A DNA stretch of 59,134 nt from the NCBI RefSeq assembly GCF_002224245.2, contig NZ_NKHK02000010.1, positions 1 through 59,134 on the forward strand, in the 5' to 3' direction. The position numbers and the translations under genes were made by a program. Position 1 is the stretch's first letter. Every line of letters starts with the position of its first letter. The notes under the pieces were generated by a model, which was not told the origin of the DNA, ran no database searches, and was given only the letters and a program-made list of their open reading frames with translations. The stretch is from Moraxella sp. VT-16-12. GTDB lineage: Bacteria; Pseudomonadota; Gammaproteobacteria; Pseudomonadales; Moraxellaceae. Of the stretch, positions 1-59,134 are shown piece after piece.

Positions 1-122
1 GAGTGGTGGGTATTATACCTGATAAAATAGGATTGTAAAGGGGGTTTTGGAGATATTTTGTAAGTGGTTGGTTTTTAGAGGGAAATTACCACGTTATCTC
101 CATTATGTCAAAAAACCCCAAC

Positions 123-629
123 TTAGCACATAATTACTGTATTATACAATCCAATATAAGCTTCTTTTTTATGAATACCTGTATACTCTAAGCTAGCATC
201 TTCATAGCGTTTAAACTTATATACTGCATCATTCATCACGCCTTCATCAAAGACATTTAGCGACACAAGCAAAGAAAAATCTGCTTGCGATAGTCCTGTT
301 ACCTTGGTAAATAGCTCAGGTTCCAACTCTTGAATAACATCTTTTAGGCTGTGTTCACGATAATCGCTTAGATACATAAAAACCGGAATGCGTGTGGCAA
401 ATTTGATGAGCTTTTCTTGGATTTGTTTACGCAAGGATTTTTCTTTCTTTTCTTCTTCACTCTTATCTATTAAATATTTTTGACGATAAATACTTGGCAT
501 AAGTTGATAACAAGCATTAGAATGTCCATGAAAAAATCGTGATTTCTCCTTATTACACTCCCCCAACTCTGATAAAGCGTTGACAAAATCTGAAATACTC
601 TCAATTCTAATTATTTCACTCATCATCAT
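123..629 (-). pseudogene. Chimeric remnant: FRG-like N-terminus joined to restriction-helicase C-terminus
   Basis: 168 codons. Residues about 25-50 (RFFHGHSNACYQLMPSIYR) resemble the start of FRG domains, whose signature is FRGQ-x-N-x-x-x-x-L-x-P-S-x-x-R; here the RG is HG. From about residue 70 the text changes to what I recognise as the C-terminus of large DEAD/DEAH restriction helicases (KLIKFATRIPVFMYLSDYRE, then MNDAVYKFKRYEDASL and YTGI). Those tails belong to proteins of many hundred residues, and no helicase motor is present here. The ATG overlaps the stop of the upstream methyltransferase gene, so it sits in the R-M operon. I infer an internal deletion that fused an FRG-type gene in frame to the end of the restriction subunit. 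The product is unlikely to restrict DNA. A short genuine protein is the alternative. Confidence 0.6.
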
Positions 630-2277
630 TCTCCAATGCTAATTTATCTTGTTTTGATTTTTTGGTGTGTGATTTTTTGGATTTATCGCTGTCGCCATCC
701 ATTGGGCGTATCATAGTTTCAATAAATTCAATCTCATCTTTGGTTAAGCCATATTTTTGATACAATTTTTCATCTGTCCAAGATTGGGTAAAGTCTTGCA
801 TAGGTACAAATTGATAAGCTCCCCTTGTAGCATGCTGTGTATTTTTCTTTAAGGTTAGCATAAAATGTAAAAATTTAGTGTTGATATAGCCCATCACATT
901 ATTACAAATTTCTTCATTTTCAAAAGGTCCAATGACCAAATAAGTTTCTGTACAAGCTGTATTTATCCCCGCATAAATTGGATTAACCCTATCTGTTTTT
1001 CCATCTCCTGTTCCTATGGCATAAGGTACAATCACCTTATGTCTTAAAATCCATTCTGTTTTTTTAAGGATATCTGCTCTACTAATGTAGCCTATTCCGC
1101 CATTTTGATAAAGCATAACATTATCTGATTTATTTTTATAAGGCTTGCTATTGCCTTTAAAGTAAGTTCTTAAACCAAACGGCTTTGCACCACTAATAAT
1201 CTCATTAAAACTTGGTTCATTAAATTTCCTAACTTTATTCAAAATCTTAATAGCTTGGTTATAGCGAATTAGAACATTTAAACCTTGCTCTTTTAATGGT
1301 CTTTTTAGTTGTGAAACACAGTTTCCATTTTCATAAGTAAATACCTCACAATCATCATTATGTTTGGCATCCCATAAAAAATAATTTACCCCGCCTTTAA
1401 TTTCTACATTATCAAAACAATCTTTGGAATTAGGAAAATCGTGAATTTGAGCAATACGTTTATCATTTAGCATATTATCCCGAAATTTATCAAGCCCTTT
1501 ACCACCAGTAAACCATCGGCTTGGCGTAATCATAATCAGATAATTGGGGTTTAATTTTTTGGCTTGTTCTATAAACAAATGATAAATGGGTTTGGCACTT
1601 GCCCCTGCCCCACCGTCATCTAATTGATAAGGCGGATTACCAATAATGACATCAAATTTCACTTTTTCTAACTCCGTAAATATCTTGTCTTTATTGGTAT
1701 GGATAAAGGCGTAGGCATGATTTTCTAAGCCATCTCTATAACCAAAAACCTCTTGGCTAGCACCGCATTCTGTGCATTTGCCGTCTTTAAATTGATGATG
1801 AACTTGTCCAAAAATGATATTTCCCATCTCATTATCAAATTCATCACAGATAGAAAACGGCGAATTAGCAACTTTGGCACAATAGACACTACGGCGAGAC
1901 AATAAAGCGGTGAGCTGCGTGATGGCAATGCCAAACACTTGATTTTTTAGAATGTGATTAATGCGAGTTTGTTTATCAGGGATTTGATTTTCTAAGCCTT
2001 TATCCAATCGTTTGACAATTTCACGCAAGAATACACCTGATTTTGACACAGGATCCAAGAATGTCGCCTTTGGATTTGACCAAATATCATTTGGCAATAA
2101 ATCCAGCATTAAATTGGCAAGTTTTGGCGAGGTAAATACTTCATCGTTGGATAGACTGGATAAACAGTCCAATACATCAGGATTATAACTCTGCTCAAAT
2201 AGCGATAATTGACCTTGATTTAATTTATCTAAGTCTTTGGTGATATTACTATTTATCTGAAATTTGGCGCTGTCCAT
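616..2277 (-). CDS. Eco57I-like N6-adenine DNA methyltransferase
   Basis: 553 aa. SAM-binding motif I is seen as FLDPVSKSGVFLREI near residue 90. The catalytic adenine-methylase motif NPPY lies near residue 215, within FDVIIGNPPYQLDDGG. The family-typical PSRWFTGGKGL follows, then a target-recognition-like C-terminal half and a Lys/Ser-rich tail. A CTECG cysteine pair near residue 170 may belong to a small zinc site. The start ATG abuts the stop of the upstream methyltransferase-like gene (2278) and the stop overlaps the next gene by 14 bases, so the three genes are one operon. It would methylate adenine in an unknown sequence to protect it. With no intact restriction subunit here it may now be an orphan methylase. 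Confidence 0.85.
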   Translation of the reverse strand: MDSAKFQINSNITKDLDKLNQGQLSLFEQSYNPDVLDCLSSLSNDEVFTSPKLANLMLDLLPNDIWSNPKATFLDPVSKSGVFLREIVKRLDKGLENQIPDKQTRINHILKNQVFGIAITQLTALLSRRSVYCAKVANSPFSICDEFDNEMGNIIFGQVHHQFKDGKCTECGASQEVFGYRDGLENHAYAFIHTNKDKIFTELEKVKFDVIIGNPPYQLDDGGAGASAKPIYHLFIEQAKKLNPNYLIMITPSRWFTGGKGLDKFRDNMLNDKRIAQIHDFPNSKDCFDNVEIKGGVNYFLWDAKHNDDCEVFTYENGNCVSQLKRPLKEQGLNVLIRYNQAIKILNKVRKFNEPSFNEIISGAKPFGLRTYFKGNSKPYKNKSDNVMLYQNGGIGYISRADILKKTEWILRHKVIVPYAIGTGDGKTDRVNPIYAGINTACTETYLVIGPFENEEICNNVMGYINTKFLHFMLTLKKNTQHATRGAYQFVPMQDFTQSWTDEKLYQKYGLTKDEIEFIETMIRPMDGDSDKSKKSHTKKSKQDKLALENDDE

Positions 2278-2958: not shown

Positions 2959-3225
2959 TTTTACCACCCTTAGAATAAATTTTGGACAACAAAAAAAGCC
3001 CATACACAGACGGACTTTTATTAAAGAAACATGAAGCTAAACCATTAACATACTGATTTTTAATGGCATTTAAGGATAAATTTGGCTGAACGCTGAAATT
3101 ATAAAGTACATATTAAAAAATGCAAGCCTTTTATTATAAAAATATGATTATCATTTGATGATTTATTTTAGCAGATGTCTTAAAAAAACGCTATAATACA
3201 CAAGATTTTTGCATAGGGCACACAT

Positions 3226-3858
3226 ATGAACATCACCGTCATCAACCACCCCTTAGTTCGCCACAAACTCTCACTCATGCGTGAAAAAGATTGTAGCACT
3301 TATAAATTTCGCACACTCACCAAAGAGCTTGGGCGACTCATGGCGTATGAAGCCAGTCGTGATTTTGAGATTGAAACCTTTAAAATGGCTGGCTGGTGCG
3401 GACAGATTGATGGTGAGCAGATTAAGGGTAAAACAGTTACCCTAGTGCCAATTTTGCGTGCAGGGCTTGGCATGCTTGATGGCGTGCTTGACCTGCTACC
3501 AACCGCCAAAATTTCTGTGGTGGGCTTACAGCGAGATGAGACCACACTTGAACCTGTGCCATTTTTTGAAAAGTTCGTCAAAGACATTGATAAACGTCCT
3601 GCCCTTATCCTAGACCCAATGCTAGCCACAGGTGGTAGCATGGTCGCCACCATTGACATGCTCAAAAAACATGGTTGTCAAAACATCAAAGCTCTTGTGC
3701 TGGTTGCTGCCCCAGAAGGTGTCAAGCTGGTCAATGATGCCCACCCTGATGTACATATTTTTACCGCTGCTTTGGATAGCTATCTTAATGAGCAAGGCTA
3801 TATCATTCCTGGGCTTGGCGATGCTGGTGATAAGATTTTTGGCACCAAACAGCTCTAA
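3226..3858 (+). CDS. upp: Uracil phosphoribosyltransferase
   Basis: 210 aa, the normal length for Upp. It converts uracil and PRPP to UMP in pyrimidine salvage, in the cytoplasm. The PRPP-binding loop is visible as [11 protein letters not shown] near residue 128, and the uracil-binding end as [19 protein letters not shown] box lies at 3192-3197, 28 bases before the start, without a convincing -35. It is a single gene facing away from the R-M operon, and the next gene converges on it. Confidence 0.96.
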
Positions 3859-3897
3859 ACATACCTTATCTATCTTACAAGCCCATCTTTAAATTCA

Positions 3898-4146
3898 CTA
3901 CTGACCGCTTGTGGGTGCACCGCTTGCGGTATCGGTAGTAGAAGCTGCCTCAGCCGCTTCTGATTCTGCTTCCAAGACCACAGGTTCAGCATTCATCACG
4001 CCAGTTGGCTCGGCTGGCTCAGCAGACATAGGCACCTCGGGTTCAGGCTGTGCTTGGGTTTTGACATCTTGGGTGTTTTTGTTGTCGCAAGCTGACAAAC
4101 CAAGTGCTGCCAAAATAATGGCTGTTGTTATGATTTTGTAGTTCAT
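3898..4146 (-). CDS. Small putative lipoprotein
   Basis: 82 aa. An N-terminal signal (Lys, then ITTAIILAALG) ends in a lipobox LSAC with the cysteine at residue 20, so it should be lipidated and exported. The rest is low complexity, rich in Glu, Pro, Ala and Thr (EPEVPMSAEPAEPTG and similar), with no recognised domain. It lies 20 bases downstream of secA on the same strand and could be cotranscribed. The function is unknown. Confidence 0.7.
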   Translation of the reverse strand: MNYKIITTAIILAALGLSACDNKNTQDVKTQAQPEPEVPMSAEPAEPTGVMNAEPVVLEAESEAAEAASTTDTASGAPTSGQ

Positions 4147-4166
4147 AAATTACCTTAAAAAAATTA

Positions 4167-6965
4167 TTAGAGCTTGCCGTGGCACTGCTTATATTTTAGA
4201 CCGCTGCCACAAGGACATGGGGCATTACGACTGATATTGGCAGGAATGACCAAATCTTCATCATTTGTAGTGGCGGTTTGATTGCCTGATGGACTTGCTC
4301 CCAAACTGATACTCATTGCCACTGATGGCGTGTGAGCTGCTGGCTTTTGGCTTATGGCTTGGTCATCAAGCTCGCCTTCAAGCCCCATCTGATGATGTTC
4401 AAAACGCATTTGCATCTGCTCAGCTTGTAATCGGCGTTCTTCTGCCAAAGCTGCCATCTCTTCTGGGGTCGGGATATGCACGCGTGCCAAATCCTGCACC
4501 ACGTCTGACTTAATCGCCCCAAGCATGGCACGAAACAGCTCAAAAGATTCGCGTTTGTATTCTTGTTCGGGATTTTTTTGGGCATAACTACGCAAATGAA
4601 TACCTTTACGCAACTGGTCCATTTGCGTCAAATGCTCTTTCCAGTGGCGGTCAAGATTACGAAGCATAAAATCACGCTCCAAGCGAGCAGCGTTTTGCTC
4701 GCCCATTTGTGTGCGTTTATTGTCATAATGAGCGATGGCGGTGTCCACAATTTTTTTACGCAGTCCATCTTCGTCCAAACGGCGGTCAGCATCTAGCCAG
4801 TCATTGATGGGCATATAAAAACGAAACGCTTCTTCAATCTCATCTTCTAAGCCATCAATATTCCATTGGTCATCCACCGAACCTGGTGGCACAAATTGGT
4901 CAATCAAGGCATTGTACACTTCATGGTGCATGGCTTTAATGTCGTCTTGTAAATCTGCTTGACCAAGCAAATCATCACGCTGAGCATAAATGACTTTACG
5001 CTGTTCGTTGGCGACATCGTCATATTTAAGCAGCTGTTTACGGGCATCAAAATCTCGTGCTTCTACTTTGCCTTGGGCGTTTTCAATGGATTTGGAGACC
5101 ATTTTATGTTCAATGGCTTCATCTTCTTTAAGACCCATGGTACGCATCATCGCCACCACACGGTCGCCTGCAAAAATACGCATCAAATCATCTTCTAGCG
5201 ACAAGAAAAAGCGTGAATAACCTGGGTCGCCTTGTCGCCCTGCTCGCCCACGTAGCTGGTTGTCAATACGGCGTGATTCATGACGCTCTGAGCCAATGAT
5301 GTGCAGACCACCTGCTTGTTTGACTTGTTCGTTTTTGATGAGCCAATCTGCTTCTAGTGCCTTTTTTTGTTCGTCCGTAAGCTCATCTAAATTAGGGACT
5401 TGGGCTTGCCAGTTACCCCCCAAAATAATATCCGTACCACGTCCTGCCATGTTGGTGGCAATCGTTACCGCTTTGGGGCGACCTGCCTGAGCGATGATTT
5501 CTGCTTCTCGTTCGTGCTGTTTGGCGTTTAGGACATTGTGGGCGATGTTTTCTTGGTCAAGCAAATAAGACAGCTCCTCACTGGCTTCAATGGTCGCCGT
5601 TCCCACCAGCACAGGTGCTCCTTTGGCGGTGATTTCACGAATCTCACGGATAATGCCTTGGTATTTGCCTAATTTGGTCAAAAAAATCTGGTCGTTTAAA
5701 TCAGTACGAGCAATCGGACGGTGTGTTGGAATAATCACCACATCAAGGTCGTAGGTGGACTTAAACTCTGCCGCTTCGGTGTCAGCAGTACCAGTCATGC
5801 CAGAGAGTTTGTCATATAAACGAAAATAGTTTTGGAAAGTGGTGGTCGCCATCGTTTGGTTTTCAGCTTGGATTTCCACGCCTTCTTTGGCTTCTACCGC
5901 TTGGTGCAAGCCATCACTCCAACGCCGACCTGGCATGGTACGCCCTGTGTTTTCATCAACAATCACCACCTCGCCCTCAGAGACGATGTAATGAATGTTT
6001 TTGACAAAAATATGATGGGCTCGGATGGCTGCTTGTACATGAGCCAATAAAGGCAACCGAGCAGGGCTGTACAAACTTTCTTTTTCGCCCAGCTCGCCCA
6101 CTTCTATCAAAAACTTTTCTATTTTTTCATAGCCTTTTTCGCTGATTTCAATGGCTCGGTTTTTTTCGTCAATCCAAAAATCACCTTCTTTGTTTTCTTT
6201 GTTAAGCTCCTCATCTTTTGAGCGTATCAAGCGGGGAATGATGGTGTTAATCAAGGCGTATAAATGTGCCGAATCCTCCGCTGCCCCAGAGATGATAAGC
6301 GGCGTGCGAGCCTCATCAATCAAAATACTGTCAATCTCATCAATAATACAGTAGTTGAGCGGACGCTGTTTTTTTTCATCCATGCTAAACACCATATTAT
6401 CACGCAGATAATCAAAGCCATACTCGTTGTTGGTGCCATAAGTGATGTCGGCACGATAAGCGTCAAACTTTTCATAAGATGGCTGCTGACTATAAATCAC
6501 CCCAACCGTCAGCCCCAAAAAGCTAAACAAAGGACGGTTTAACTCAGCATCACGGGTAGCCAAGTAGTCATTGACCGTAACCACATGAACGCCTTTGCCA
6601 CTGATGGCATTAAGATAAATGGCAAGGGTCGCCATCAAAGTTTTACCCTCACCCGTTTTCATCTCGGCGATTTTGCCCTCGTGGAGTGTGATACCACCGA
6701 TAAGCTGCACGTCATAATGACGCATGCCATTGACACGCTTGGACGCTTCACGACACACCGCAAAGGTCTCAGGCAGCAGTTTGTCTAGGCTTTCGCCTGC
6801 TTGGTAGCGGTTTTTAAATTCGGTGGTTTTTTGGTGCAATTCATCATCGGTCAGTGCCGAAATGGTGGGTTCGTAGGCATTGATTTTGTCTACGATTTTT
6901 CTCATGCGTTTTAATTCACGCTCATTTTTGGTGCCAATAACGCCACCGATGATTTTTGCTAACAT
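4167..6965 (-). CDS. secA: Protein translocase ATPase SecA
   Basis: 932 aa from the ATG at 6965 (MLAKIIGG, the family-typical start); an upstream in-frame ATG would add 11 residues. SecA drives preproteins through SecYEG using ATP. Visible are Walker A TGEGKT at 104-109, a Walker B region with [13 protein letters not shown], the PMAGRGTDI-type helicase motif ([13 protein letters not shown]), the [11 protein letters not shown] motif, and a C-terminal SEC-C zinc/SecB-binding tail with Cys917, Cys919, Cys928 and His929. The full expected domain order is present. Confidence 0.98.
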
Positions 6966-7084
6966 AATATATCCACCATCAATTATCAGCACGCCCAATG
7001 CTAGGCATGCTGTGTGCCAACCAAATCAGCCGGCAATCATTAAACTTGCATTTATATGGTTATTCTCAAAAAAATAACAAGGGT

Positions 7085-8377
7085 TTATGTGCCTGACAGC
7101 TCGCCAAAGACTTCATCTGCTGCCAAAAGCGTCTTTTGAATGTCTTCATCAGAATGCATGATGGACATAAATGCCGCCTCAAACGCAGAAGGCGCCAAAT
7201 AAATGCCACGGTCAAGCATGCCATGAAAAAATTTGGCAAATTTTTGGCTGTCAGCTTGGCTAACTTCACCAAAATTTTGGGGCAAAGTTTTGGCAAAAAA
7301 CAGCCCAAACATACCGCCAAGATGACAGGTTGCAAAATCTACACCATGTTTGTCAGCCAATGCTTGCAAGCCTTGTACCAGTTTGGCGGTTTTGGCACTT
7401 AGTGCCTCATAAAAGCCCTCTACCGTCAGCTCATCAAACATCGCCTTACCTGCTCGCATTGCCAAGGGGTTACCTGAGAGTGTGCCCGCTTGATAAACGC
7501 CACCAAGCGGTGCGATGCATTCCATAATCTCACGCTTACCCCCAAACGCCCCAACAGGCAAGCCTGCACCGATGATTTTACCAAAGGTAGTCAAATCTGG
7601 CGTGATGTTAAAATAAGCCTGAGCCCCACCAAGTCCCACCCGAAAACCTGTCATCACTTCATCAAAAATCAGCACCGCACCATTGTCTGTGCATAACTGA
7701 CGGAGTGTGTCATGAAAATGCTGGCTAGGAATAATCATATTCATATTGCCTGCGATTGGCTCAACAATCACGCAAGCAATTTCACTGCCAAATTTTTCAA
7801 ACGCCGCCTGTAAAGCTGACACATCATTATAAGGCAAGGTCAGCGTGTGTTTGGCAAAATCGGCTGGCACACCTTGACTGGTTGGCTCACCAATGTCTAG
7901 CATGCCTGAGCCTGCTTTGACCAACAAACTGTCCGAATGCCCATGATAACAGCCTTCAAATTTAACAATCTTATCACGTCCTGTATAGCCACGAGCCAGA
8001 CGAATGGCACTCATGGTCGCCTCTGTGCCAGAGCTGGTCATACGCAAAAGCTCCACACTTGGCACAATGTCAGCGATGATGTCTGCCATCGTCGTCTCAC
8101 TGGGTGTGGGAGCTCCAAAGGACAATCCATCATCGGCAGCAGCTTTGACCGCCGCAATGACTTTTGGGTGAGTATGCCCCAAAATCATCGGACCCCACGA
8201 ACCAACATAATCAATATACGCACGCCCTGTCGTGTCATACATCTTTGAGCCAGCAGCACGGCTGATAAATACAGGCGTACCACCCACACCAGCAAAAGCA
8301 CGCACTGGTGAATTTACCCCACCTGCAATATGGCGTTTGGCTTTTTCAAAAAGAACTTGGTCAGCAGTCAAAGTCAT
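7085..8377 (-). CDS. hemL: Glutamate-1-semialdehyde 2,1-aminomutase
   Basis: 430 aa, normal length. It makes 5-aminolevulinate from glutamate-1-semialdehyde in the C5 route to haem. Visible are the N-terminal [12 protein letters not shown], the PLP-phosphate region [18 protein letters not shown], the PLP-binding Asp in [13 protein letters not shown], and the Schiff-base lysine in [17 protein letters not shown] near residue 267. It stands alone between secA and the divergent Roadblock locus. Haem is also needed downstream by NarI. Confidence 0.97.
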
Positions 8378-8804
8378 GATTGATTCCTAGTATAAAAATA
8401 ACTATTTTAGCATTTTTCATCTTGGGCTACCATGCATTAAATCAGGACAGATTAATTTTTAGCAAAAATCGCTCTCATCGCACCTTTTCACACCAAAAAA
8501 CTGTCAATCACTCAACGGACAAAACAAAATTGATACAATTTCAACAATCGCACATCAAAGACATCAACAAATGTTTAAAGGTATAATGATAAAAATTAAT
8601 TTTAACCCCAAAACACCCCCTTTTATCCTAAATTACCCACAAATCACACGCTTTAAAAAAAATTCGGCACAAAACTTGCTTTATCCAGTATGATTGACAG
8701 ATGGACTTTGTGCCCAACCCATCAATCATGGAGGTCAGAAACATTGTCCATCTGACTGGCTATCTGACCAAATAGGTTTTTACACTAACACAAAAAGGTG
8801 AATT
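8378..8804 (+). promoter_or_regulatory. 427-base leader of the Roadblock/GTPase locus
   Basis: No gene is seen. It holds a TATAAT at 8582-8587 (no clear -35) and a perfect 9-bp inverted repeat, CAGATGGAC at 8698-8706 and GTCCATCTG at 8746-8754, which could form a hairpin 50 bases before the ribosome site (AAGGTG) of the Roadblock gene. The region must also contain the hemL promoter on the other strand, which I could not assign. Confidence 0.4.
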
Positions 8805-9167
8805 ATGCGTACCGATATGTTCCAACAAATCCTAGAAGACCTAAACAGCTCATCTGCTGACGTTGAAGCTTCTGCCCTTATCTCAACAGACGGTTTGATG
8901 ATTGCTTCTGCCTTGCCTACTGGTATTGACGAAGACCGTGTGGGTGCGATGAGTGCCGCCCTATTATCTTTGGGGGACCGTGCTGGTAGCGAGCTTGGTC
9001 GTGGTAGCACTGACCGTGTTTTGGTACAAGGTGAAAAAGGCTATGTCATCATGACATCGGCAGGCTCTGAGGCGGTATTGACTGTACTTGCCAAATCTAA
9101 CGCCAAACTAGGTCTGATTTTCCTAGACATCAAACGTGCTTCTGAGGCATTGTCTAAACTGCTTTAA
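8805..9167 (+). CDS. Roadblock/LC7 domain protein
   Basis: 120 aa, one Roadblock/LC7 domain over nearly the whole length. The typical pattern is present: SSSADVEASALISTDGLMIA (strand, turn, strand), then EDRVGAMSAALLSLGDRAG (helix), then VLVQGEKGYVIMTSAG and AVLTVLAKSNAKLG. Such proteins regulate small Ras-like GTPases (MglB acting on MglA, CvnB with CvnD). A GTPase gene of the right kind lies 4 kb downstream in the same orientation, so a regulatory pairing is inferred. The ATG has a clear AAGGTG ribosome site. It is the first gene of the locus. Confidence 0.9.
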   Translation: MRTDMFQQILEDLNSSSADVEASALISTDGLMIASALPTGIDEDRVGAMSAALLSLGDRAGSELGRGSTDRVLVQGEKGYVIMTSAGSEAVLTVLAKSNAKLGLIFLDIKRASEALSKLL

Positions 9168-9245
9168 TCTTGGTTGCCAAAATCATCTTAGTTGGTGGTT
9201 TTGGCATCATCAGACCTAACATTTACAAGAATAGGAAATTCGTTC

Positions 9246-9711: not shown

Positions 9712-9713
9712 TC

Positions 9714-13037: not shown

Positions 13038-13117
13038 AGAAATTGAACAATTTTTGTCAGGTATTTGGCACAATTTAGTAATCATCATCTCGTACATTCA
13101 CATCAATTGGAGTCATT

Positions 13118-13663: not shown

Positions 13664-13679
13664 CTATTTTGGTCTCATC

Positions 13680-14300: not shown

Positions 14301-14316
14301 AAACAAACCCAATAAA

Positions 14317-16498: not shown

Positions 16499-17305
<807 letters not shown>

Positions 17306-44984: not shown

Positions 44985-44985
44985 T

Positions 44986-45480: not shown

Positions 45481-45491
45481 GTCAAAAAATT

Positions 45492-48961: not shown

Positions 48962-48962
48962 A

Positions 48963-50054: not shown

Positions 50055-50284
50055 AAGATCACCTTGACACAAATTTTAAAATTTAAGTTCGAAACAAGAC
50101 AGCAATGTATTGCTTTAAAATCAGATAGCAATATTATCAAGGATAACTTTTATCTTTGCCATACTTCTTTGGGCGGATAAGCGACCAAAATCCGCTCAAA
50201 TCAATGCGTATAAAAAACCACAAAGGCTTGGCTGGGGTCATCTTTGTGGCAAAACTCGTTAAGTTATTGTTTTATTTATTGTTA

Positions 50285-51016
50285 TTATTGTGATATTTTT
50301 TGGCGGACGATTTGATAATTACGACCTAGATACCAGATTGGAGCAGAAATGATATGCACCAAGCGAGTAAATGGGAAAATCAAAATAATCGTAATCCCCA
50401 AGGCGATATGTAGCTGATAAATTAAGCTAATATCTTGCATATTTGCCAATGCCTGCATGGGGCGAAACACCGTGATGTTTTGAGCCCAGCTTGACAAGGC
50501 TACCATCACCGAGCCGTCCATGTGCTTGGTAGAAGCAAAAATCGTCCCCAAGCCCAAATTTAGCTGAATAAATAAAATCACCAGCACCAGCTTATCAGCA
50601 AAACTTGACGTATGCGACACTCGTGGGTCGGTAAAACGGCGAACCAACAGCATGGCAAGCCCAATCCAGCACACCACCCCCATCACGCCACCAGCGACCA
50701 TCGCCAGTAGTTGTTTTTGAGATGAGCTAATAAAATGCTCATAGACAGCGTGTGGTGTTAACATACCGACCAAATGCCCGCACAAAATCCCAATGATACC
50801 AATATGAAACATATTGCTAGCGATTCTCATGCCCTTGTCATTGAGCATTTGGCTTGAGCCTGTTTTCCATGAATATTGAGACAAATCAAATCTTGCCCAT
50901 GTGCCAATCAAGCACACCGCCAAAGCAAGATAAGGATAAATCCCAAAAACAAACACTTGCAACCAATTTAGATGAGCAAGGTTGTCAAAGCTTGTGGTTA
51001 TAGCGGTTGAAATCAT
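50285..51016 (-). CDS. narI: Respiratory nitrate reductase gamma subunit NarI
   Basis: 243 aa, five membrane helices. Haem-b ligand histidines are in NMFHIGIIGILCGHLVGM and YQLHIALGITIILIFPFTRLVHIISAP. It takes electrons from quinol to NarH. The start overlaps the narJ stop by 4 bases. Confidence 0.96.
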   Translation of the reverse strand: MISTAITTSFDNLAHLNWLQVFVFGIYPYLALAVCLIGTWARFDLSQYSWKTGSSQMLNDKGMRIASNMFHIGIIGILCGHLVGMLTPHAVYEHFISSSQKQLLAMVAGGVMGVVCWIGLAMLLVRRFTDPRVSHTSSFADKLVLVILFIQLNLGLGTIFASTKHMDGSVMVALSSWAQNITVFRPMQALANMQDISLIYQLHIALGITIILIFPFTRLVHIISAPIWYLGRNYQIVRQKISQ

Positions 51017-51807
51017 GCGAACACCCCCTTAGAGCTTGCACTTGTATTTTGTTTGTCAAATCCAACCCAATGCACAGGAATTTGGGCATTTTGATTGGCT
51101 TGTCTTGCCAATGTTTCGGCGATACGTTGGTCGGTTTGGCTAGATGGGCAACGGTCTTCTTGTTTGGCAGACAAAAAGTCCACCACTTCTTCTTCCCATT
51201 CTTTATCCATCGCTTCAGGCGTACTGTCATCCACAGGCTTGCCTAGCTTGGCAAGCTCATCATCAATCACGCTCAGTGGCTTGCCTGCCACTTGTAGCAA
51301 GGCTTTGAACAAACAGACATAACTGCTGTTTTTGTCCACAAGTCTTGCAGATAGCAAGGTCAAAATATGGCTGACATCGGCAATGTGCATACGAATGTCC
51401 ATATCATCATCAGTCTGGGTCGCTTGATACGCCAAAAATTCTAGATACATCGGCAGATAATCAGGCAATTCTTTGACACCAATTTCAAAGCCCGCCTGCT
51501 CGTATTGACCCATCAAGTCCACCATCGCCTGCCCACGGTCACGACTCTCGCCATGCACGTGTTCAAATAGCCATAGCGACAAGCTACGTCCCCGCTCAAA
51601 CAAGCCATCATAACGTGATTGGGCTTCAATCTCACCTAGGCTTACCAATTCATCAATAAAATCAGCAATTTCTTGGCGGACAGGCGGACTAATCAGCACA
51701 GAGCTAGCCACGATTTGTTTGCATTGCTCTAAGGTATCATCAACGAACAACTCATCGCTTGGGTAGTCGAGCAATAGGCTAATGACCTTCAAAAGACGAA
51801 AATCCAT
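51013..51807 (-). CDS. narJ: Nitrate reductase assembly chaperone NarJ
   Basis: 264 aa. LLKVISLLLDYPSDEL at the start and LSLWLFEHVHGESRDRGQAM are NarJ signatures; PDYLPMYLEFLA is the TorD-like segment. It holds apo-NarG for cofactor loading and is not part of the final complex. The stop overlaps the narI start and the gene follows narH with no gap. Confidence 0.95.
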   Translation of the reverse strand: MDFRLLKVISLLLDYPSDELFVDDTLEQCKQIVASSVLISPPVRQEIADFIDELVSLGEIEAQSRYDGLFERGRSLSLWLFEHVHGESRDRGQAMVDLMGQYEQAGFEIGVKELPDYLPMYLEFLAYQATQTDDDMDIRMHIADVSHILTLLSARLVDKNSSYVCLFKALLQVAGKPLSVIDDELAKLGKPVDDSTPEAMDKEWEEEVVDFLSAKQEDRCPSSQTDQRIAETLARQANQNAQIPVHWVGFDKQNTSASSKGVFA

Positions 51808-53346
51808 CTAGTTCTCCCAAGTTTGTACCGTTGCAATCATCTCACGGCGATTGGCTCTGGTTTGACCAAACATATTGGTATCACTGCCACCGCCACAGCC
51901 CGAGCCAAAGCTAAAGCCACAGCCATTTTTCTCGGCAAAGACATCGCTTAGTGCTTCTTCACGGTGAGCTGTCGGAATGACAAATCTATCTTCATAATTG
52001 GCGATCGCCAAATAGCGATACATTTCATCTACTTGCAATTTGGTCAAGCCCACCGCATCAAGCACTACCTTAGCATCTTGTTTTTCAACCAGTTCAAGGC
52101 GCTTATAGCTACGCATGGCAAGCAGACGCTTTAGGGCAAGGCGGACAGGCTCTTCATCGCCAGCAGTCAGCATATTGGCAAGGTATTTTAGCGGAATACG
52201 CAGGCTATCCACATCAGGAATTAGCCCGTCCATACCCACTTGCCCCGCCTCAGCAGCATTTTGGATGGGTGATAGTGGTGGCACATACCACACCATCGGC
52301 AAAGTGCGATACTCTGGGTGCAATGGCAAGGCAAGTTTCCAGTCCATCGCCAATTTGTACACAGGGGATTTTTGAGCCGCTTCAATCACACTCATCGGCA
52401 CGCCATCTTTGAGAGCCTGCTCGATAACTTTGGGGTCATTAGGGTCTAAGAATACATCAAGCTGTGCTTGATATAAGTCTTTTTCGTTGGGGGTGCTGGC
52501 TGCATCTTTGATTTTGTCAGCATCATAAAGCAGTACGCCAAGATAGCGGATACGCCCCACACACGTCTCAGAACAGATGGTCGGCTGACCGCTTTCAATA
52601 CGTGGATAACAAAAGATACATTTTTCGGATTTGCCTGATTTCCAGTTGTAGTAGATTTTTTTGTAAGGACAACCAGAAATACACATCCGCCATCCACGGC
52701 ATTTTTCTTGGTCAATCAAGACAATACCATCTTCTTCACGCTTATAAATCGCCCCAGATGGGCACGATGCCACACACGTTGGGTTTAAGCAATGCTCGCA
52801 CAGTCTTGGCAGATACATCATAAAGGTGTTTTCGTATTGACCATAAATGTCGGCTTGGACATTGTCAAAATTTTTGTCAATACGGCGTTTTTCAAATTCA
52901 GAGCCTAAAATCTCCTCCCAGTTTGGACCCCATTCAATTTTTTGCATTCTTTTGCCCGTTATTAAAGAACGAGGGCGTGCTATCGGCTGATGCTCACTAA
53001 TTGGGGCGGTGTGTAGATGCTGATAATCAAAATCAAACGGCTCATAATAATCATCTAGCGTTGGCAAATCAGGGTTAGCAAAGATATTCGCCAAAATACG
53101 AAATTTGCCCCCAATTCTAGGATTGATAGAGCCGTCGGCATTTCTTATCCAGCCACCCTTCCATTTTTCTTGATTTTCCCATTCTTTGGGAAAACCGATA
53201 CCAGGTTTGGACTCTACATTATTAAACCATGCGTATTCCATGCCTTCACGACTGGTCCACACATTTTTACAAGTAACAGAACAAGTATGGCAACCAATAC
53301 ATTTGTCAAGGTTTAGCACCATGCCCACTTGAGAACGAATTTTCAT
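51808..53346 (-). CDS. narH: Respiratory nitrate reductase beta subunit NarH
   Basis: 512 aa from ATG 53346; a TTG five codons upstream is less likely. Four ferredoxin-type cysteine groups (CIGCHTCSVTCKNVW, CEHCLNPTCVASCP, CRGWRMCISGCPYKK with the Trp typical of the 3Fe-4S cluster, and CIFCYP with CSETCVG). It passes electrons from NarI to NarG. Confidence 0.98.
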   Translation of the reverse strand: MKIRSQVGMVLNLDKCIGCHTCSVTCKNVWTSREGMEYAWFNNVESKPGIGFPKEWENQEKWKGGWIRNADGSINPRIGGKFRILANIFANPDLPTLDDYYEPFDFDYQHLHTAPISEHQPIARPRSLITGKRMQKIEWGPNWEEILGSEFEKRRIDKNFDNVQADIYGQYENTFMMYLPRLCEHCLNPTCVASCPSGAIYKREEDGIVLIDQEKCRGWRMCISGCPYKKIYYNWKSGKSEKCIFCYPRIESGQPTICSETCVGRIRYLGVLLYDADKIKDAASTPNEKDLYQAQLDVFLDPNDPKVIEQALKDGVPMSVIEAAQKSPVYKLAMDWKLALPLHPEYRTLPMVWYVPPLSPIQNAAEAGQVGMDGLIPDVDSLRIPLKYLANMLTAGDEEPVRLALKRLLAMRSYKRLELVEKQDAKVVLDAVGLTKLQVDEMYRYLAIANYEDRFVIPTAHREEALSDVFAEKNGCGFSFGSGCGGGSDTNMFGQTRANRREMIATVQTWEN

Positions 53347-53445
53347 ATTAATTTTCCTCAACCTAGCAAAAGCTGGGTAAAATGTGTCATTGAGTATAGT
53401 ACCTGCTTTGGCAGAATTTCTTTATTCTGCCAAAGAGCGTGCGCA

Positions 53446-56400
53446 TCAGTCTAAAGTGGTAGGTAATTGCTGTGGCAGGCTGTCGTCTGGCTTGCCTTCT
53501 AGCCAGTCAATATTTGCCATTTTACGCACCACAACAAACTCATCTCGGTTGCACCCCACTGTGCCATAATAGTTAAATCCATAACTTTGTTGTGCATAAC
53601 CGCCAATCATGTGAGTTGGTTTTAAGATTGCTCGAGTGACTGAGTTATGAATACCGCCACGCGTACCTGAATTTTCAGAACCTGGGATATTGACTAGCTT
53701 TTCTTGAGCGTGGTACATCATGGTCATGCCTTCTTTGACACGCTGCGAGACAACCGCTCGGGCAGTAATAGCACCGTTATGGTTGAACACTTCAATCCAG
53801 TCGTTATCCACAATGCCTGCTTTTTTGGCATCGATCTCACTCATCCATACAATAGGGCCGCCACGGCTTAGCGTCAGCATAAGCAAGTTTTCAGAATAAG
53901 TAGAATGAATGCCCCACTTTTGGTGTGGTGTTAAGAAGTTTAGCACCACTTCTTTGTTGCCATTGGGCTTATAGCGTTTGAGCTCATCGGTGGTACGTGT
54001 ATCAATCGGTGGGCGGTATTGTTGCATTTGCTCACCGAAAGCTTGCATCCATGGATGGTCTTGATAAAACTGCTGACGACCTGTAATGGTACGCCAAGGA
54101 ATTAGCTCATGCACGTTGGTATAGCCTGCGTTATAGCTGACTTTTTCAGACTCAAGACCTGACCAAGTAGGGCTTGAAATAATCTTTCTAGGCTGAGCGA
54201 CAATATCACGGAAACGGATTTTTTCATGCTCGCTAGATTTGGCAAGGTGAGTATGGTCTCGTCCTGTGGTTTTTGATAAGTCCGCCCATGCTTTGACCGC
54301 TACGTGTCCGTTGGTTTCAGGAGCCAGCATCAAAATTGTCTCGGCAGCATCAACCGCCGACTCAATGCGTGGACGCCCTTTACTAATGGCATCATCGGTA
54401 ACGGTATAATTCAAATCCGCCAAGTGGCGCACCTCTTCATTGGTATCCCAAGTGATACCTTTTGAGCCATTACCCAGTTTATCCATCAACACCCCAAGAG
54501 ATGTGTATTTAGCATAGGTATTAGGATAATCACGCTCTACTACCTTGATGTGCGGGCAGTTAATCCCTGGAATTGGGCGTTCACCTGCAGTTTTCCAATC
54601 CGTACCACCAAAAGGCTGAGCAAGTTCAGCAGGACTGTCGTGCTGCATTGGCAAAGTGACAATATCGGTCTCGACACCTAAATGACCATGCGTTAGTTCG
54701 GAAAACTTTTTGGCGATGCCTTTATAAATTTCCCAATCAGTCTTGGATTCCCAAGCAGGATCGGTCGCCGCCGTCAAAGGGTGAATGAACGGATGCATAT
54801 CCGAAGTATTCATATCGTCTTTTTCATACCAAGTGGCGGTTGGCAAGACAATATCTGAATACAAGCAGGTGGACGACATACGAAAATCTAGCGTCGTTAC
54901 CAAATCAAGCTTGCCTGTTGGGGCATTTTCTAGCCACTCTACTTCGGTTGGGCGAATGCCGTCATGTACCGTTTCTTCACCTAGGATGCCGTGCTTTGTC
55001 CCTAGCAGATAATGAAGCATATATTCATGCCCTTTACCTGATGAGCCTAGCAAGTTTGACCGCCAAATGAACAAATTACGCGGGAAGTTGGCGGGATTGT
55101 CTGGACTTTCGGCAGCAAAGCGGATTTGACCATTTGCCAAATTATCCACGACATAATTTTCGGCATCACCTGAGGCTTTGGCAGCCTTGCCGATGTGTAG
55201 CGGATTTTGATTAAGCTGGGGAGCAGACGGCAACCACCCCGCACGCTCAGCACGTACGTTGTAGTCTAGCATATGCTCGGGGAATTTGGATTTATCAGCG
55301 TGTGGCGATAAAATCTCGTGGGCTGAGACTTTTTCGTGTCGCCATTGGCTTGAATGATTATAAAAGAAACTTGTGCCATTCATGTGGCGTGGTGGTCTGT
55401 GCCAGTCTAGAGCAAACGCTAGCGGAGCCCAGCCTGTCTGCGGACGCAGTTTTTCTTGACCGACATAATGAGCCCAACCACCGCCAGATTGACCAATACA
55501 GCCACACAGAATTAGCATATTGATGACACCACGGTAATTCATGTCCATGTGATACCAGTGGTTCATCCCCGCCCCGATGATAATCATGGACTTACCATGA
55601 GTTTTGTGGGCATTTTCGGCAAATTCACGGGCGATTTGAATGACCTTCTCACGGCTAACCCCTGTAATGGCTTCTTGCCAAGCAGGTGTACCAGCTACTG
55701 TTGCATCATTATAATCATCAGTAACGTGCTGACCACCGACGCCATTATCTACACCCAGATTGGCAAGCATCAAATCAAATACTGTCACCACTTTGGCAGT
55801 AGTACCATCAGCCAAGGTTAGGCTACGACAAGGAATGGTTTTGTATTGAATATCATCGCCTTTGGCAGACGTAAAGTACGGATGCTCACCACCACCAAAG
55901 TAATCAAGCCCTACTTCTACTGTCTCGCCAGAGCCTTTTTGAGATAGTTGTAGTTTGACTTCACTGTTATGTGTACCTTCTTTAGTTTCCAAATTCCAGC
56001 GACCTTTTTCGCCCCAACGATAACCGATAGAGCCAATCGGTGAGACTAGCTCGCCTGTTTCATTGACGGCAATGGTTTTCCACTCAGGGTTATTGTCCTG
56101 ACCTAGATGACCTACCAAATCAGACGCACGCAAAAAACGCCCAGCACGAGCTGACTTACCTTCGTCTTCAATCATCACAAGCATAGGCAAATCAGTATAA
56201 CGGCGAGCATAATCAAGGAAATAATCGCTAGGTTGTTTTAAATAAAACTCTTTGATAATCACATGGCAAAACGCCTGAGCAAGAGCAGCGTCCGTCCCTT
56301 GTTTTGGATTTAGCCACAAATCGCACAGCTTGGCAATCTCAGCATAGTCAGGGGTGATGGCAACAGTCTTTGTGCCTTTGTAGCGTACTTCGGTAAAAAA

Positions 56401-57198
56401 GTGAGCATCAGGGGTACGAGTTTGTGGCACATTTGAACCCCATGCGATGATATAGTCAGAATTATACCAATCCGCCGCTTCAGGTACGTCCGTTTGCTCT
56501 CCCCAAATCATAGGGCTAGCTGGTGGCAAATCGCAATACCAATCATAAAATGACAAACACACGCCACCAATCAAGGATAAATAGCGACTGCCCGCTGCAT
56601 AACTTACCATACTCATGGCAGGGATAGGCGAAAAGCCGATAATACGGTCAGGCCCAAAGGTTTTGGCGGTATAGACGTTGGCAGCAGCGATGATTTCGTT
56701 AACTTCATTCCAACTTGAACGCACAAAGCCACCCAAGCCACGCTTGGACTTGTACTGCGCAGTCTTATTAGGATCGCTGACAATGCTACCCCACGCTTCA
56801 ACTGGGTCTGTATATTTAGTACGCGCTTCTCGCCAAAGCTTCAGTAAAGGTTTACGCACTTTTGGGTATTTGAGACGATTGGCAGAGTACATATACCAAC
56901 TATAACTGGCACCACGTGGACAGCCGCGCGGTTCGTGATTAGGCAAATCTGGGCGAGTGCGAGGATAATCGGTTTGCTGAGTTTCCCAAGTCACTAAGCC
57001 ATTTTTAACATAGATTTTCCATGAGCATGAGCCAGTACAGTTGACACCATGAGTTGAGCGGACAACTTTGTCATATTGCCAGCGATTACGATAAAAATTC
57101 TCCCAGTCACGGTTTTCATCACGGACTTCACCATGTCCATCGGCATATTCACCCGTTTTTTTCTTAAAGAAACGAAATTGGTCGAGTAAGTGGCTCAT
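53446..57198 (-). CDS. narG: Respiratory nitrate reductase alpha subunit NarG
   Basis: 1250 aa, the normal length. The FS0 cluster start is HGVNCTGSCSWKIYVKNG, with PRGCPRGASYSWYMYS downstream. The Mo-ligand Asp lies in NSDYIIAWGSNVP. The N-terminus lacks a Tat signal, consistent with a cytoplasm-facing catalytic subunit. It reduces nitrate to nitrite with bis-MGD. First gene of narGHJI; 160 bases upstream lies the can gene. Confidence 0.98.
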   Translation of the reverse strand: MSHLLDQFRFFKKKTGEYADGHGEVRDENRDWENFYRNRWQYDKVVRSTHGVNCTGSCSWKIYVKNGLVTWETQQTDYPRTRPDLPNHEPRGCPRGASYSWYMYSANRLKYPKVRKPLLKLWREARTKYTDPVEAWGSIVSDPNKTAQYKSKRGLGGFVRSSWNEVNEIIAAANVYTAKTFGPDRIIGFSPIPAMSMVSYAAGSRYLSLIGGVCLSFYDWYCDLPPASPMIWGEQTDVPEAADWYNSDYIIAWGSNVPQTRTPDAHFFTEVRYKGTKTVAITPDYAEIAKLCDLWLNPKQGTDAALAQAFCHVIIKEFYLKQPSDYFLDYARRYTDLPMLVMIEDEGKSARAGRFLRASDLVGHLGQDNNPEWKTIAVNETGELVSPIGSIGYRWGEKGRWNLETKEGTHNSEVKLQLSQKGSGETVEVGLDYFGGGEHPYFTSAKGDDIQYKTIPCRSLTLADGTTAKVVTVFDLMLANLGVDNGVGGQHVTDDYNDATVAGTPAWQEAITGVSREKVIQIAREFAENAHKTHGKSMIIIGAGMNHWYHMDMNYRGVINMLILCGCIGQSGGGWAHYVGQEKLRPQTGWAPLAFALDWHRPPRHMNGTSFFYNHSSQWRHEKVSAHEILSPHADKSKFPEHMLDYNVRAERAGWLPSAPQLNQNPLHIGKAAKASGDAENYVVDNLANGQIRFAAESPDNPANFPRNLFIWRSNLLGSSGKGHEYMLHYLLGTKHGILGEETVHDGIRPTEVEWLENAPTGKLDLVTTLDFRMSSTCLYSDIVLPTATWYEKDDMNTSDMHPFIHPLTAATDPAWESKTDWEIYKGIAKKFSELTHGHLGVETDIVTLPMQHDSPAELAQPFGGTDWKTAGERPIPGINCPHIKVVERDYPNTYAKYTSLGVLMDKLGNGSKGITWDTNEEVRHLADLNYTVTDDAISKGRPRIESAVDAAETILMLAPETNGHVAVKAWADLSKTTGRDHTHLAKSSEHEKIRFRDIVAQPRKIISSPTWSGLESEKVSYNAGYTNVHELIPWRTITGRQQFYQDHPWMQAFGEQMQQYRPPIDTRTTDELKRYKPNGNKEVVLNFLTPHQKWGIHSTYSENLLMLTLSRGGPIVWMSEIDAKKAGIVDNDWIEVFNHNGAITARAVVSQRVKEGMTMMYHAQEKLVNIPGSENSGTRGGIHNSVTRAILKPTHMIGGYAQQSYGFNYYGTVGCNRDEFVVVRKMANIDWLEGKPDDSLPQQLPTTLD

Positions 57199-57358: not shown

Positions 57359-57991
57359 TTAATGCGAATAGATAAATGCCGATGCCAGCTGTTGTGCATT
57401 ACTAATACTCACGTCCAAGTCCTCAATCAGCCCACTATTCATGTCATAAATCCAGCCATGTACCGAAAGTTGTCTGCCTTGATACCAAGCATTTTGCACT
57501 ATGGTAGTATGGCAAATATTAGTGACCTGACGCTTAACATTGATTTGGCATAATAAATCAAGCTCCTCTTCATCAGTTAAACCCTCAAAAGCCTCACGAT
57601 ATTGGTAACGCATTCCTTTCAACGGTCTAAGCCAGTTATCTATCAGACCATATTCTTGCTGACTAAGCGCCGCTTTAACGCCGCCGCAACCATAGTGACC
57701 ACATACGATAATATGCTCAACCCTAAGTACATCTACCGCAAACTGTAACACCGATAACAAATTCATATCAGTTGAAACTACCATATTTGCGACATTGCGG
57801 TGCACAAAAAGCTCTCCTGGCATGACGCCTACCACTTCATTGGCGGGCACACGACTATCAGAGCAGCCGATCCATAAATATTTGGGTGACTGCGCCTTTG
57901 AGAGTCTTGGAAAATAGTCAGGATCACGCGCTGTCAGTGACTGCGCCCAATATTGGTTGTTATTTAACAAATCACTTAATGTTACATGCAT
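57359..57991 (-). CDS. can: Beta-class carbonic anhydrase
   Basis: 210 aa from ATG 57991 (GGGAG upstream; a GTG two codons earlier also exists). Zinc ligands and dyad in IGCSDSRVPA and CGHYGCGGVKAAL; RNVANMV is conserved. It hydrates CO2 to bicarbonate. The link to the nitrate cluster is position only. Confidence 0.95.
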   Translation of the reverse strand: MHVTLSDLLNNNQYWAQSLTARDPDYFPRLSKAQSPKYLWIGCSDSRVPANEVVGVMPGELFVHRNVANMVVSTDMNLLSVLQFAVDVLRVEHIIVCGHYGCGGVKAALSQQEYGLIDNWLRPLKGMRYQYREAFEGLTDEEELDLLCQINVKRQVTNICHTTIVQNAWYQGRQLSVHGWIYDMNSGLIEDLDVSISNAQQLASAFIYSH

Positions 57992-58128
57992 ACACACTCC
58001 CAGAGTTGATTTGGTTTTAGCATAAATCAGTTATCAATACCTGGCTATGCTCTAAATGGTTAAGGCACTACCCTAAAGTAGTAAGCTTGGCTGGCTGCTT
58101 TCTACCTAAGCATACTATGACTAATATC

Positions 58129-58142
58129 TGTAAATATTTACA
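58129..58142. promoter_or_regulatory. Palindrome before the Crp/Fnr gene
   Basis: Perfect 14-bp palindrome TGTAAATATTTACA, 32 bases before the regulator ATG. It resembles a Crp/Fnr-family operator in symmetry (TGTnA-like ends) and could be an autoregulation site. A second inverted pair, ACTAC/GTAGT, lies near 58068-58083. Confidence 0.4.
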
Positions 58143-58174
58143 ATACTTCAATATAAATTACCCACTCTTTAGCC

Positions 58175-58951
58175 ATGAAAAAACTCTATAATGAAAAAAA
58201 GGTTGTTTATCTTCAGAGCTTGAGCTGCCACCCTATTTTTGCAACAACCAATAAGAAACTTTCAATTTCGGCAGCAACGATTCACTACTACCCCAAAGGC
58301 AGTTTGATTTATTTGCAATATGCTAAAGTGCGTTATTTATATTTTTTATTAGAAGGTGCAATCCATTGCTATCGTCAGCAGCCCAATGGTCAAGAAAGCC
58401 TAATAAACAGATTTGATACAAATAAAACTCATATCCACCAGGTGCAGATGATCAATGACAGCCTGCCTAATTTAAAAGTAGATGAGCATGATGAAAAACA
58501 AGATGAGATGCTTGCGCATAATCAATATAACTTGTTTGGAAAAAATAGCTGCCATCAGTTAACCGCTAAAGCTTCACAAAATAGCTATGTTGCCATTTTA
58601 CCCATTCATGAGATAAAGAAAACATTCAACAACTCATCTTTAGCTACGATATTTACTTGGTATGCAGAGCAGATGTATGAGCAAATCTCGACACAGTTTT
58701 TATTGTATGATTTATTAAGCCTGAAAACTGCACAAGCGAAAGTAGCTTATTATCTATTATGCCATGCTGACAATAACAGCAAAATAGAGATATCCATGAG
58801 TCAAAAAAATCTTGCAAGCCTACTAAGTATCCGTGCTGAAACACTCAGCCGAACTTTGCGATCTTTGATAAATCAGCAAATTATTAGCGTAAATGGTGCA
58901 CAATACACTATTTTAAAATCCGAACACCTAGAACAGATGGTGGAACAATGA
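58175..58951 (+). CDS. Crp/Fnr family transcription regulator
   Basis: 258 aa. A cyclic-nucleotide-binding-like beta barrel (KGSLIYLQYAKVRYLYFLLEGAIHCYRQQPNGQESLINRF) followed by a helix-turn-helix of the Crp type (ISMSQKNLASLLSIRAETLSRTLRSL). It lacks the N-terminal cysteine cluster of FNR, so it is not an oxygen sensor of the Fe-S type. An insertion of some 30 polar residues (about 90-120) interrupts the sensor domain. Its place beside the nitrate cluster suggests control by NO or nitrite, like Dnr/NarR, but this is inference. Confidence 0.85.
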   Translation: MKKLYNEKKVVYLQSLSCHPIFATTNKKLSISAATIHYYPKGSLIYLQYAKVRYLYFLLEGAIHCYRQQPNGQESLINRFDTNKTHIHQVQMINDSLPNLKVDEHDEKQDEMLAHNQYNLFGKNSCHQLTAKASQNSYVAILPIHEIKKTFNNSSLATIFTWYAEQMYEQISTQFLLYDLLSLKTAQAKVAYYLLCHADNNSKIEISMSQKNLASLLSIRAETLSRTLRSLINQQIISVNGAQYTILKSEHLEQMVEQ

Positions 58952-59057
58952 CCACACAAACGCTATTTCATTTTTGATGAGATGATATTTTAAAAAATAG
59001 TGATTTAATCAGCAGATTACTTTTTCGACAATCGTAATAACAATTCAAAGATTCGCC

Positions 59058-59134
59058 ATGCTCATGAACATCCAAAACACTGCCAAACGCCCAACATCGC
59101 CCCACCCCATTTTAAATTTGGGTTTTCGCATATT
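59058..59134 (+). CDS. Start of a gene cut by the window edge, possibly NnrS-like
   Basis: 25 codons visible from ATG 59058 (a second ATG at 59064). The text SPHPILNLGFRI recalls the N-terminus of NnrS proteins, membrane haem-Cu proteins of the NO response, which usually have HP-x-x-x-L-x-FR-x-FF. Too short to be sure, but the context fits. Confidence 0.35.
   Translation, partial: MLMNIQNTAKRPTSPHPILNLGFRI

What the first reader, a model, noticed from the sequence alone, without database searches (positions are those of the whole stretch)
1..59134. GATC is almost absent from the first 28.5 kb but normal in 28.5-47.6 kb
By eye GATC occurs at 2052, 15037, 22232 and 27890 only in the first 28.5 kb, where about 100 would be expected from base composition. 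It occurs about 68 times in 28.5-47.6 kb, about 7 times in 47.6-57.3 kb and 3 times in the last 1.8 kb. MboI, the classic GATC enzyme, comes from Moraxella bovis, so long exposure to GATC restriction explains the desert. The block from the integrase to modC, including the nar regulators and Moco genes, would then be a recent import, with moeA-narG older or from another source.
Basis: partly seen in the sequence, partly recalled or inferred. Interest (0 to 1): 0.85.

Follow-up and report, generated by a model that had tools for sequence, protein, structure and literature searches.

The report
Restriction-scarred Moraxella genome with imported island
This Moraxella genome has almost erased the four-letter word GATC and several other palindromes from its DNA, most likely a lasting scar of DNA-cutting defence enzymes, and a nitrate-respiration gene block in the window still has the normal number, which marks it as imported from a differently scarred relative.

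Summary
In detail: GATC occurs 4, 68, 7 and 4 times in the four segments against Markov expectations of 122, 99, 46 and 7. The desert is genome-wide: 66 against 2260 over 29 other pieces. Relatives share it to varying degrees. GGCC, GCGC, TCGA, CGCG and CCGG are also 5-17 fold depleted, in species-specific sets that act as a barcode. Codon choice escapes GATC by several synonymous routes, so the word itself is selected against. Beside valS, relatives carry interchangeable MboI-, MutH-like- and DpnI-type systems. This genome shows no D12, DpnII or DpnI family gene, and its valS slot holds GATC-normal DNA. The 28.4-47.6 kb block carries the barcode of GATC-tolerant Moraxella, so import is supported. 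Both halves of the nar/moco cluster join the same relative, G012, against core genes, so phylogeny does not split at 47.6 kb; barcode and GC3 do. Restriction-site avoidance, M. catarrhalis included, is in print (PMC4687349). The barcode use and the cassette fossils look new.

The parts
3100..28440 (.). Native GATC desert; also poor in GGCC, GCGC, TCGA, CGCG and CCGG. Holds upp-like, secA, guaA, tyrS, anmK and others
   Evidence: 3 GATC against 110, 3 against 75 by codon shuffle; best fit to own barcode; families
28357..28432 (+). tRNA-Gly (gcc) at the left step
   Evidence: ARAGORN
29322..30509 (+). Tyrosine integrase directly after tRNA-Gly
   Evidence: Pfam PF00589, PF12167
30946..32665 (+). 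S24 peptidase (UmuD/LexA-like) and UmuC-like fragment
   Evidence: Pfam, NCBIfam
34581..47583 (.). moeB, two narK, narX/Q, narL, moaA, MOSC, moaB, mobA, moaC, moaE, modABC-like: GATC-normal imported block
   Evidence: 45 GATC against 44 by codon shuffle; barcode of tolerant genomes; families
47675..57198 (-). moeA, PPIC-type protein, narI, narJ, narH, narG: GATC-poor part of the cluster
   Evidence: 7 GATC against 34 by codon shuffle; families
57359..58951 (.). Carbonic anhydrase (-) and Crp-type regulator (+), GATC-normal
   Evidence: 4 GATC against 6.6; families

Best explanation
The desert is a selection scar of type II restriction. Lineages of this genus gained and lost GATC-specific systems (shown: relatives hold MboI-, MutH-like- and DpnI-type versions that replace one another beside valS). 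Each unmodified GATC carried a small cost, so the word was purged genome-wide through whatever synonymous change was at hand (shown: codon contexts). If at mutation-selection balance, a ratio of 0.02 needs only 2Ns of about 4 per site (inference). Other systems, not identified here, purged GGCC, GCGC, TCGA, CGCG and CCGG, giving each lineage its own barcode. The 28.4-47.6 kb block entered from a Moraxella-like donor whose barcode is low mainly in GGCC, CCGG and ACGT, perhaps with the tRNA-Gly integrase (inferred). It keeps its GATC because it came recently or because no GATC cleavage acts in this cell now (inferred).
For: Genome-wide depletion of six palindromes while AGCT, GTAC, CATG, CTAG and TTAA stay at .85-1.06. 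Asp is GAT in 2% of 630 cases before a C-initial codon against 45-82% otherwise, Ile is ATC in 0.00 of 1401 after G against 44-51% otherwise; tolerant genomes 58% and 32%. The rRNA operon keeps its sites. GATC systems in relatives. The own valS slot has 7 of the 9 GATC of its 20 kb. Block 28.44-47.64 fits tolerant barcodes (-23 to -29) far better than its own (-360). Sister G017 lacks moaA, narG, narX and has dprA after its tRNA-Gly. Mirror case in G001, G010, G013.
Against: No GATC enzyme or relic was found in this genome; that its valS slot once held one is inference. The enzymes behind the other words were not sought. Other Moraxellaceae genera also run low at GATC in short loci (24 loci, ratios 0-.93), so the habit is not confined to Moraxella. 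Own-G012 divergence is saturated at fourfold sites, so 'recent' cannot be dated. No att repeat was found. The right edge is off the contig. The exact donor is not in hand: G012 differs in ACGT and GC.
Confidence: 0.72

Rival explanations
1. Transformation filter. The genus is a population of mutually incompatible GATC restrictors (MboI cuts unmethylated, DpnI cuts methylated GATC). GATC-free alleles are the only ones that pass between all of them, so the desert is kept up by gene exchange even in cells with no GATC enzyme.
For: MboI- and DpnI-type cassettes at the same locus in different genomes. The desert is strong in a genome with no enzyme found. A dprA gene is present and core genes conflict, as expected with much exchange. 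PMC4687349 proposes that GATC avoidance eases exchange (passage).
Against: Explains GATC only; the five other words have no known methyl-dependent counterpart here. Three DpnI genomes (G009, G010, G021) are tolerant (.42-.56).
Confidence: 0.25
2. The GATC-poor state of moeA-narG reflects the donor: the block came in one piece from a GATC-tolerant Moraxella that already carried a GATC-poor narGHJI.
For: Both flanks of the segment are GATC-normal and the segment fits a desert-group barcode best (G005 -22, own -39). Such mosaics exist in G001, G010 and G013.
Against: The segment's genes group with G012, whose copies are GATC-rich (18 in narG), not with desert species. An earlier import followed by purging fits as well: at G012's 18 narG sites own keeps 2 and has one-step neighbours at 12.
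Confidence: 0.35
3. Mutation bias (for example deamination of a methylated C) rather than selection removes GATC.
For: GATT and AATC are slightly enriched (1.21, 1.15).
Against: Other neighbours are enriched as much or more (GATG 1.44, GAGC 1.42), and Asp before C switches to GAC, a T-to-C change that deamination cannot make.
Confidence: 0.04
4. MutH-type mismatch repair nicking of unmethylated GATC drives the loss.
For: Raised in PMC4687349 (passage).
Against: Does not explain the five other depleted palindromes. MutH was not searched for in this genome.
Confidence: 0.05

Closest known systems
Restriction-site avoidance and traces of lost R-M systems (Rusinov et al. 2015, PMC4687349; passages read)
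   Same: Palindromic type II sites depleted genome-wide, with the enzyme in relatives rather than in the genome; GATC avoidance with DpnI-like genes, M. catarrhalis named
   Different: Here at least six words at once, down to 0.02, in sets that differ between species and that trace gene transfer; the passages I saw do not use it that way
Pneumococcal DpnI/DpnII alternative cassettes (from PMC4687349 passage, and the abstract start of PMC3573125)
   Same: DpnII/MboI-type and DpnI-type systems as alternatives in different strains
   Different: Beside valS in Moraxella, dpnI lies between truncated mboA and mboC remnants with the same breakpoints in three genomes, and a MutH-like type and unrelated cassettes use the place too
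tRNA-borne genomic islands with tyrosine integrase
   Same: Integrase next to tRNA-Gly; block absent at that site in the sister genome
   Different: No flanking repeat found; right end not in the contig

Membership tests
Restriction-site avoidance | Genome-wide depletion of the site against a Markov or codon null | tested here: met
Restriction-site avoidance | The word itself is selected against, by several synonymous routes | tested here: met
Restriction-site avoidance | Cognate R-M system in the genome or in close relatives | tested here: met
   In relatives for GATC; own genome none of three families found. Other words not tested
Restriction-site avoidance | Newly arrived DNA lacks the depletion | tested here: met
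   Block 28.4-47.6 kb, own valS slot
MboI/DpnII R-M system in this genome | DpnII-family nuclease and D12 methylase genes | tested here: not met
   0 hits each; own contig C12 is withheld (reads N)
Dpn-type alternative GATC cassette locus (relatives) | DpnII-type and DpnI-type genes alternate at one place | tested here: met
   valS 3' side: G011 mboABC; G009, G010, G021 dpnI between mboA and mboC remnants
Dpn-type alternative GATC cassette locus (relatives) | Cleavage specificity for GATC or GmATC | not testable with these tools
   Assigned from Pfam families PF04556 and PF06044
tRNA-borne genomic island | Integrase next to a tRNA gene; site empty in a relative | tested here: met
tRNA-borne genomic island | Direct repeat of the tRNA end at the far edge | tested here: not met
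   None in the window; the far edge may lie off the contig

The most novel reading that the evidence does not exclude
Moraxella species carry heritable, independently shifting sets of purged palindromes that act as a readable barcode of restriction history, sharp enough to source and orient gene transfers within the genus. GATC-freeness is kept up across the genus by complementary MboI/DpnI/MutH-like cassettes exchanged at one locus, so it persists in cells with no GATC enzyme.
Probability: 0.3. Interest if true: 0.8.

Novelty: new variant of a known kind. Interest (0 to 1): 0.6.

Why it matters
If the barcode reading holds, restriction scars give an independent compass for gene transfer: donor group and direction can be read from which palindromes a segment lacks, as seen here both ways (the 28.4-47.6 kb block inward; nar/moa segments of G001, G010 and G013 outward from desert-type species, where trees agree). 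It also predicts which cutting specificities past members of the genus carried, and the valS locus offers a fossil record of one system overwriting another.

Tried and rejected
Base composition as the cause: rejected by codon shuffles. C-deamination: rejected by codon context. Two phylogenetic origins at 47.6 kb: not supported. Dating by fourfold sites: saturated, dropped. G012 itself as donor of the block: unlikely, since its nar/moa stretches have ACGT 0 of 35, 0 of 34 and 3 of 22 and GC .48.48.43, while the block has ACGT 15 of 32 and GC .397. att repeats: none. Island right edge through dprA: own dprA is on contig C2, so it gave no edge. A known defence family in the own valS slot: PADLOC no hit for the 384-aa ORF (NA37 by Pfam), Pfam no hit for the 409-aa ORF. 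A firm nine-genome desert clade: held by the four-gene tree (95) and by secA (98), but without secA own and G017 move next to G021, pulled by valS. My notebook line '19 of 20 genes nearest G012' was wrong; the count is 17 of 21. Print: searches listed no paper on Moraxella palindrome barcodes or valS cassettes (listings only; the library lacks most subscription papers). PMC6241649 on M. catarrhalis R-M has none of the words GATC, valS, DpnI, MboI, avoid, valyl in its main text.
Full report
OBSERVATION. Markov expectations are 122, 99, 46 and 7. With synonymous codons shuffled inside genes the native part has 3 against 75+/-7, the moeB-modC part 45 against 44+/-5 and moeA-narG 7 against 34+/-5. 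The left step falls at tRNA-Gly(gcc), 28357-28432, before an integrase. The right step falls between the convergent ends of modC (47583) and moeA (47675). A short GATC-normal stretch follows at 57.25-59.1 kb (4 against 6.6). The window is all of contig C1 of a 2.15 Mb, 60-contig genome. It is Moraxella by nearest named relatives (AnmK 76% to a Moraxella MAG and 75% to M. lacunata). Gene names rest on family matches for moeB/ThiF, narK, narX/Q, narL, moaA, moaC and for MOSC, moaB, mobA, moaE, modABC, moeA, narGHJI, secA, guaA, tyrS. The mod, mob and moaB labels go beyond the general families matched and lean on gene order.

GENOME-WIDE, AND IN RELATIVES. Outside the window, 29 own pieces (524,517 bases) hold 66 GATC against 2260. 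Adding the window, the rRNA operon and one GC-rich stretch gives 205 against 2659 over 609,291 bases. The rRNA operon keeps 16 of 22.5. Of the 19 loci counted, the six named Moraxella ones are poor (2 of 45, 14 of 72, 6 of 60, 1 of 11, 3 of 71, 1 of 12), and nine of Acinetobacter or Moraxellaceae lie at .72-1.06. Against a sharp border at the genus: 24 short loci of other genera of the family range from 0 (G027, 0 of 16.9, also without GGCC or GCGC) to .93. In 20 other genus genomes, on stretches of 9-108 kb, the ratio runs from .01 to .63 (G007 is withheld). In a tree of secA, valS, murA and anmK, nine low genomes (.01-.25: own, G017, G008, G016, G005, G002, G011, G018, G019) fall on one side of the midpoint root (support 95), the other eleven being .36-.63 with three low ones (.08.16.23). 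secA alone gives the same nine (98). Without secA, own and G017 move beside tolerant G021, pulled by valS. valS is the gene next to the cassette slot. So exchange is frequent and the deep tree is uncertain. Own and G017 are sisters in both concatenations.

MORE THAN ONE WORD. In 18 own stretches GATC .02, GGCC .06, GCGC .07, TCGA .08, CGCG .13 and CCGG .19 are depleted; TGCA .61 and ACGT .66 are lower than most; AGCT, GTAC, CATG, CTAG and TTAA lie at .85-1.06. Across genomes these vary independently: GCGC .01-.89, TCGA .00-.81, ACGT .02-.69, GATC .01-.63. Own and its sister G017 differ at GCGC (.06 and .70) and CGCG (.12 and .60), though G017 rests on 26 kb. I read each set as a restriction barcode.

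SELECTION ON THE WORD. In 211 long ORFs of own stretches, Asp is GAT in 2% of 630 cases before a C-initial codon and 45-82% otherwise; Ile is ATC in 0.00 of 1401 after G and 44-51% otherwise. In tolerant genomes the figures are 58% and 32%. The escapes include T to C and C to T, and the third base before ATC is almost never G. That is what selection against a DNA word looks like, not what one mutational process makes.

THE ENZYMES. Own genome: D12 methylase 0, DpnII/MboI 0, DpnI 0. Genus: DpnII in 2 of 22 (G003, G011), DpnI in 4 of 22 (G009, G010, G019, G021), D12 over cut-off in 13 of 22. G011 has mboA-mboB-mboC between valS and a deacetylase-like gene (label by eye); G003 has the three genes elsewhere. 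On the 3' side of valS G001 and G008 have an mboA-like methylase (83 and 80%) and two further ORFs, one with sub-cut-off similarity to MvaI/BcnI and MutH. G009, G010 and G021 have dpnI flanked by mboA residues 1-70 and mboC residues 132-273, the same limits in all three, with dpnI 98-100% identical. So an MboI-type system was overwritten by a DpnI gene, and the product has spread. In the own genome the slot between valS and the same deacetylase-like gene (2.5 kb) holds an NA37-family gene and a 409-aa ORF and contains 7 of the 9 GATC of its 20 kb stretch (expected in the slot 9.6). The slot's content is thus itself a late arrival; that it replaced a GATC system is inference. Beside murA, G014 has a Dam-like methylase with an ORF of sub-cut-off PD-(D/E)XK similarity, and G018 a broken remnant. 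Own has a pair that looks like a toxin-antitoxin module by eye.

THE ISLAND. Scored by eight words, 28.44-47.64 kb fits tolerant genomes (G013 -23.2, G010 -23.5, G001 -24.5, G012 core -28.6), not its own (-360.4). 3.1-28.44 kb fits its own best (-19.2; G002 -23.4). 47.64-57.25 kb fits G005 best (-21.9; own -38.8). 57.25-59.1 kb fits tolerant genomes (-10.1; own -31.7). Sister G017 has no hit for moaA, narG or narX, and dprA follows its tRNA-Gly. Own dprA lies on another contig, so the empty site is not a clean one. The run from moeB to the carbonic anhydrase gene has the same order in G012, apart from the MOSC gene, which is missing there. In G018 the run from narK1 to the carbonic anhydrase gene is kept, the second narK lies at the other end, and moeB was not found in the stretches. 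Of 21 genes, 17 are nearest G012 among the genomes compared; mobA is nearest G018, moaC G011 by one point, narJ ties, and MOSC is missing in G012. Trees of moaABCE and narJHG both join own with G012 (98/98 and 100/99). Core genes of the same nine genomes reject that pairing with secA (p-AU 4e-6) and without (1e-6). The halves thus share a phylogenetic neighbour but differ in barcode, in GC3 (.30-.48, mostly under .40, and .42-.48) and in own branch length against G012 (.24 to .087, and .042 to .049). Either the structural half came earlier and was purged, or the donor already had a GATC-poor copy. I cannot decide.

THE MIRROR CASE. In G001, G010 and G013 (ratios .56-.69), six nar and moa segments have 0 GATC (P .011 to 2e-7; the segments were chosen after seeing the empty bins, so these are not corrected). 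In both trees those genes sit on very short branches with G005, G011 and G002 of the desert group. Not all of the cluster is so: moeA of G010 (5) and narI (6 in G001, 7 in G010), narL and narX keep GATC. The barcode says the empty segments moved out of a desert species, and the trees agree. This is the best independent support for reading the window's block as a transfer the other way.

KNOWN AND NEW. Avoidance of type II sites, its persistence after loss of the system, and GATC avoidance in genomes with DpnI-like genes including M. catarrhalis are in PMC4687349 (passages). Searches listed nothing on multi-word barcodes in Moraxella or on the valS fossils. That MboI comes from M. bovis and that MnlI cuts at CCTC is recalled.

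Noticed in passing
L166, L167, L177, L271-L273 (G010, G009, G021), valS 3' side: dpnI sits between an mboA 5' remnant and an mboC 3' remnant with the same limits in three genomes, a fossil of one restriction system overwritten by another.
   Followed up: yes
L140, L282, L145, L281, L142, L285 (G010, G001, G013): GATC-free nar and moa segments inside GATC-tolerant genomes, near-identical in trees to desert-group species: transfer in the opposite direction.
   Followed up: yes
window 616-3003 (-): Two ORFs with Eco57I- and MmeI-type methylase similarity, looking like pieces of a type IIG restriction-modification gene at the contig end.
   Followed up: partly
window 3100-28440, coding strands: CCTC is far rarer than GAGG on coding strands (2 against 34 expected, 22 against 48), a strand-asymmetric avoidance of what I recall as the MnlI site.
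   Followed up: no
L287:697-12051 (own contig C55, about 66.7-78.1 kb): A 3784-aa ORF in a GC .52, GATC-bearing stretch between desert regions, next to galE-, ugd- and pgi-like genes.
   Followed up: no
window 1-91: The contig start is repeated near the starts of own contigs C55 (77 bases, 100%) and C59 (81 bases, 95%).
   Followed up: no
window 4167-6998 and valS (L210) against other genomes: SecA is 98% identical to G017 while AnmK is 70%, and valS groups own with G021: strong gene-tree conflict, a sign of frequent exchange.
   Followed up: partly
L172 (G008): An EcoRV-family nuclease (PF09233, 394 bits) beside a D12 methylase.
   Followed up: no
L302 (G027, another genus of the family): 3.7 kb with 0 of 16.9 GATC, 0 of 19.1 GGCC and 0 of 8.9 GCGC: a similar desert outside Moraxella.
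   Followed up: no
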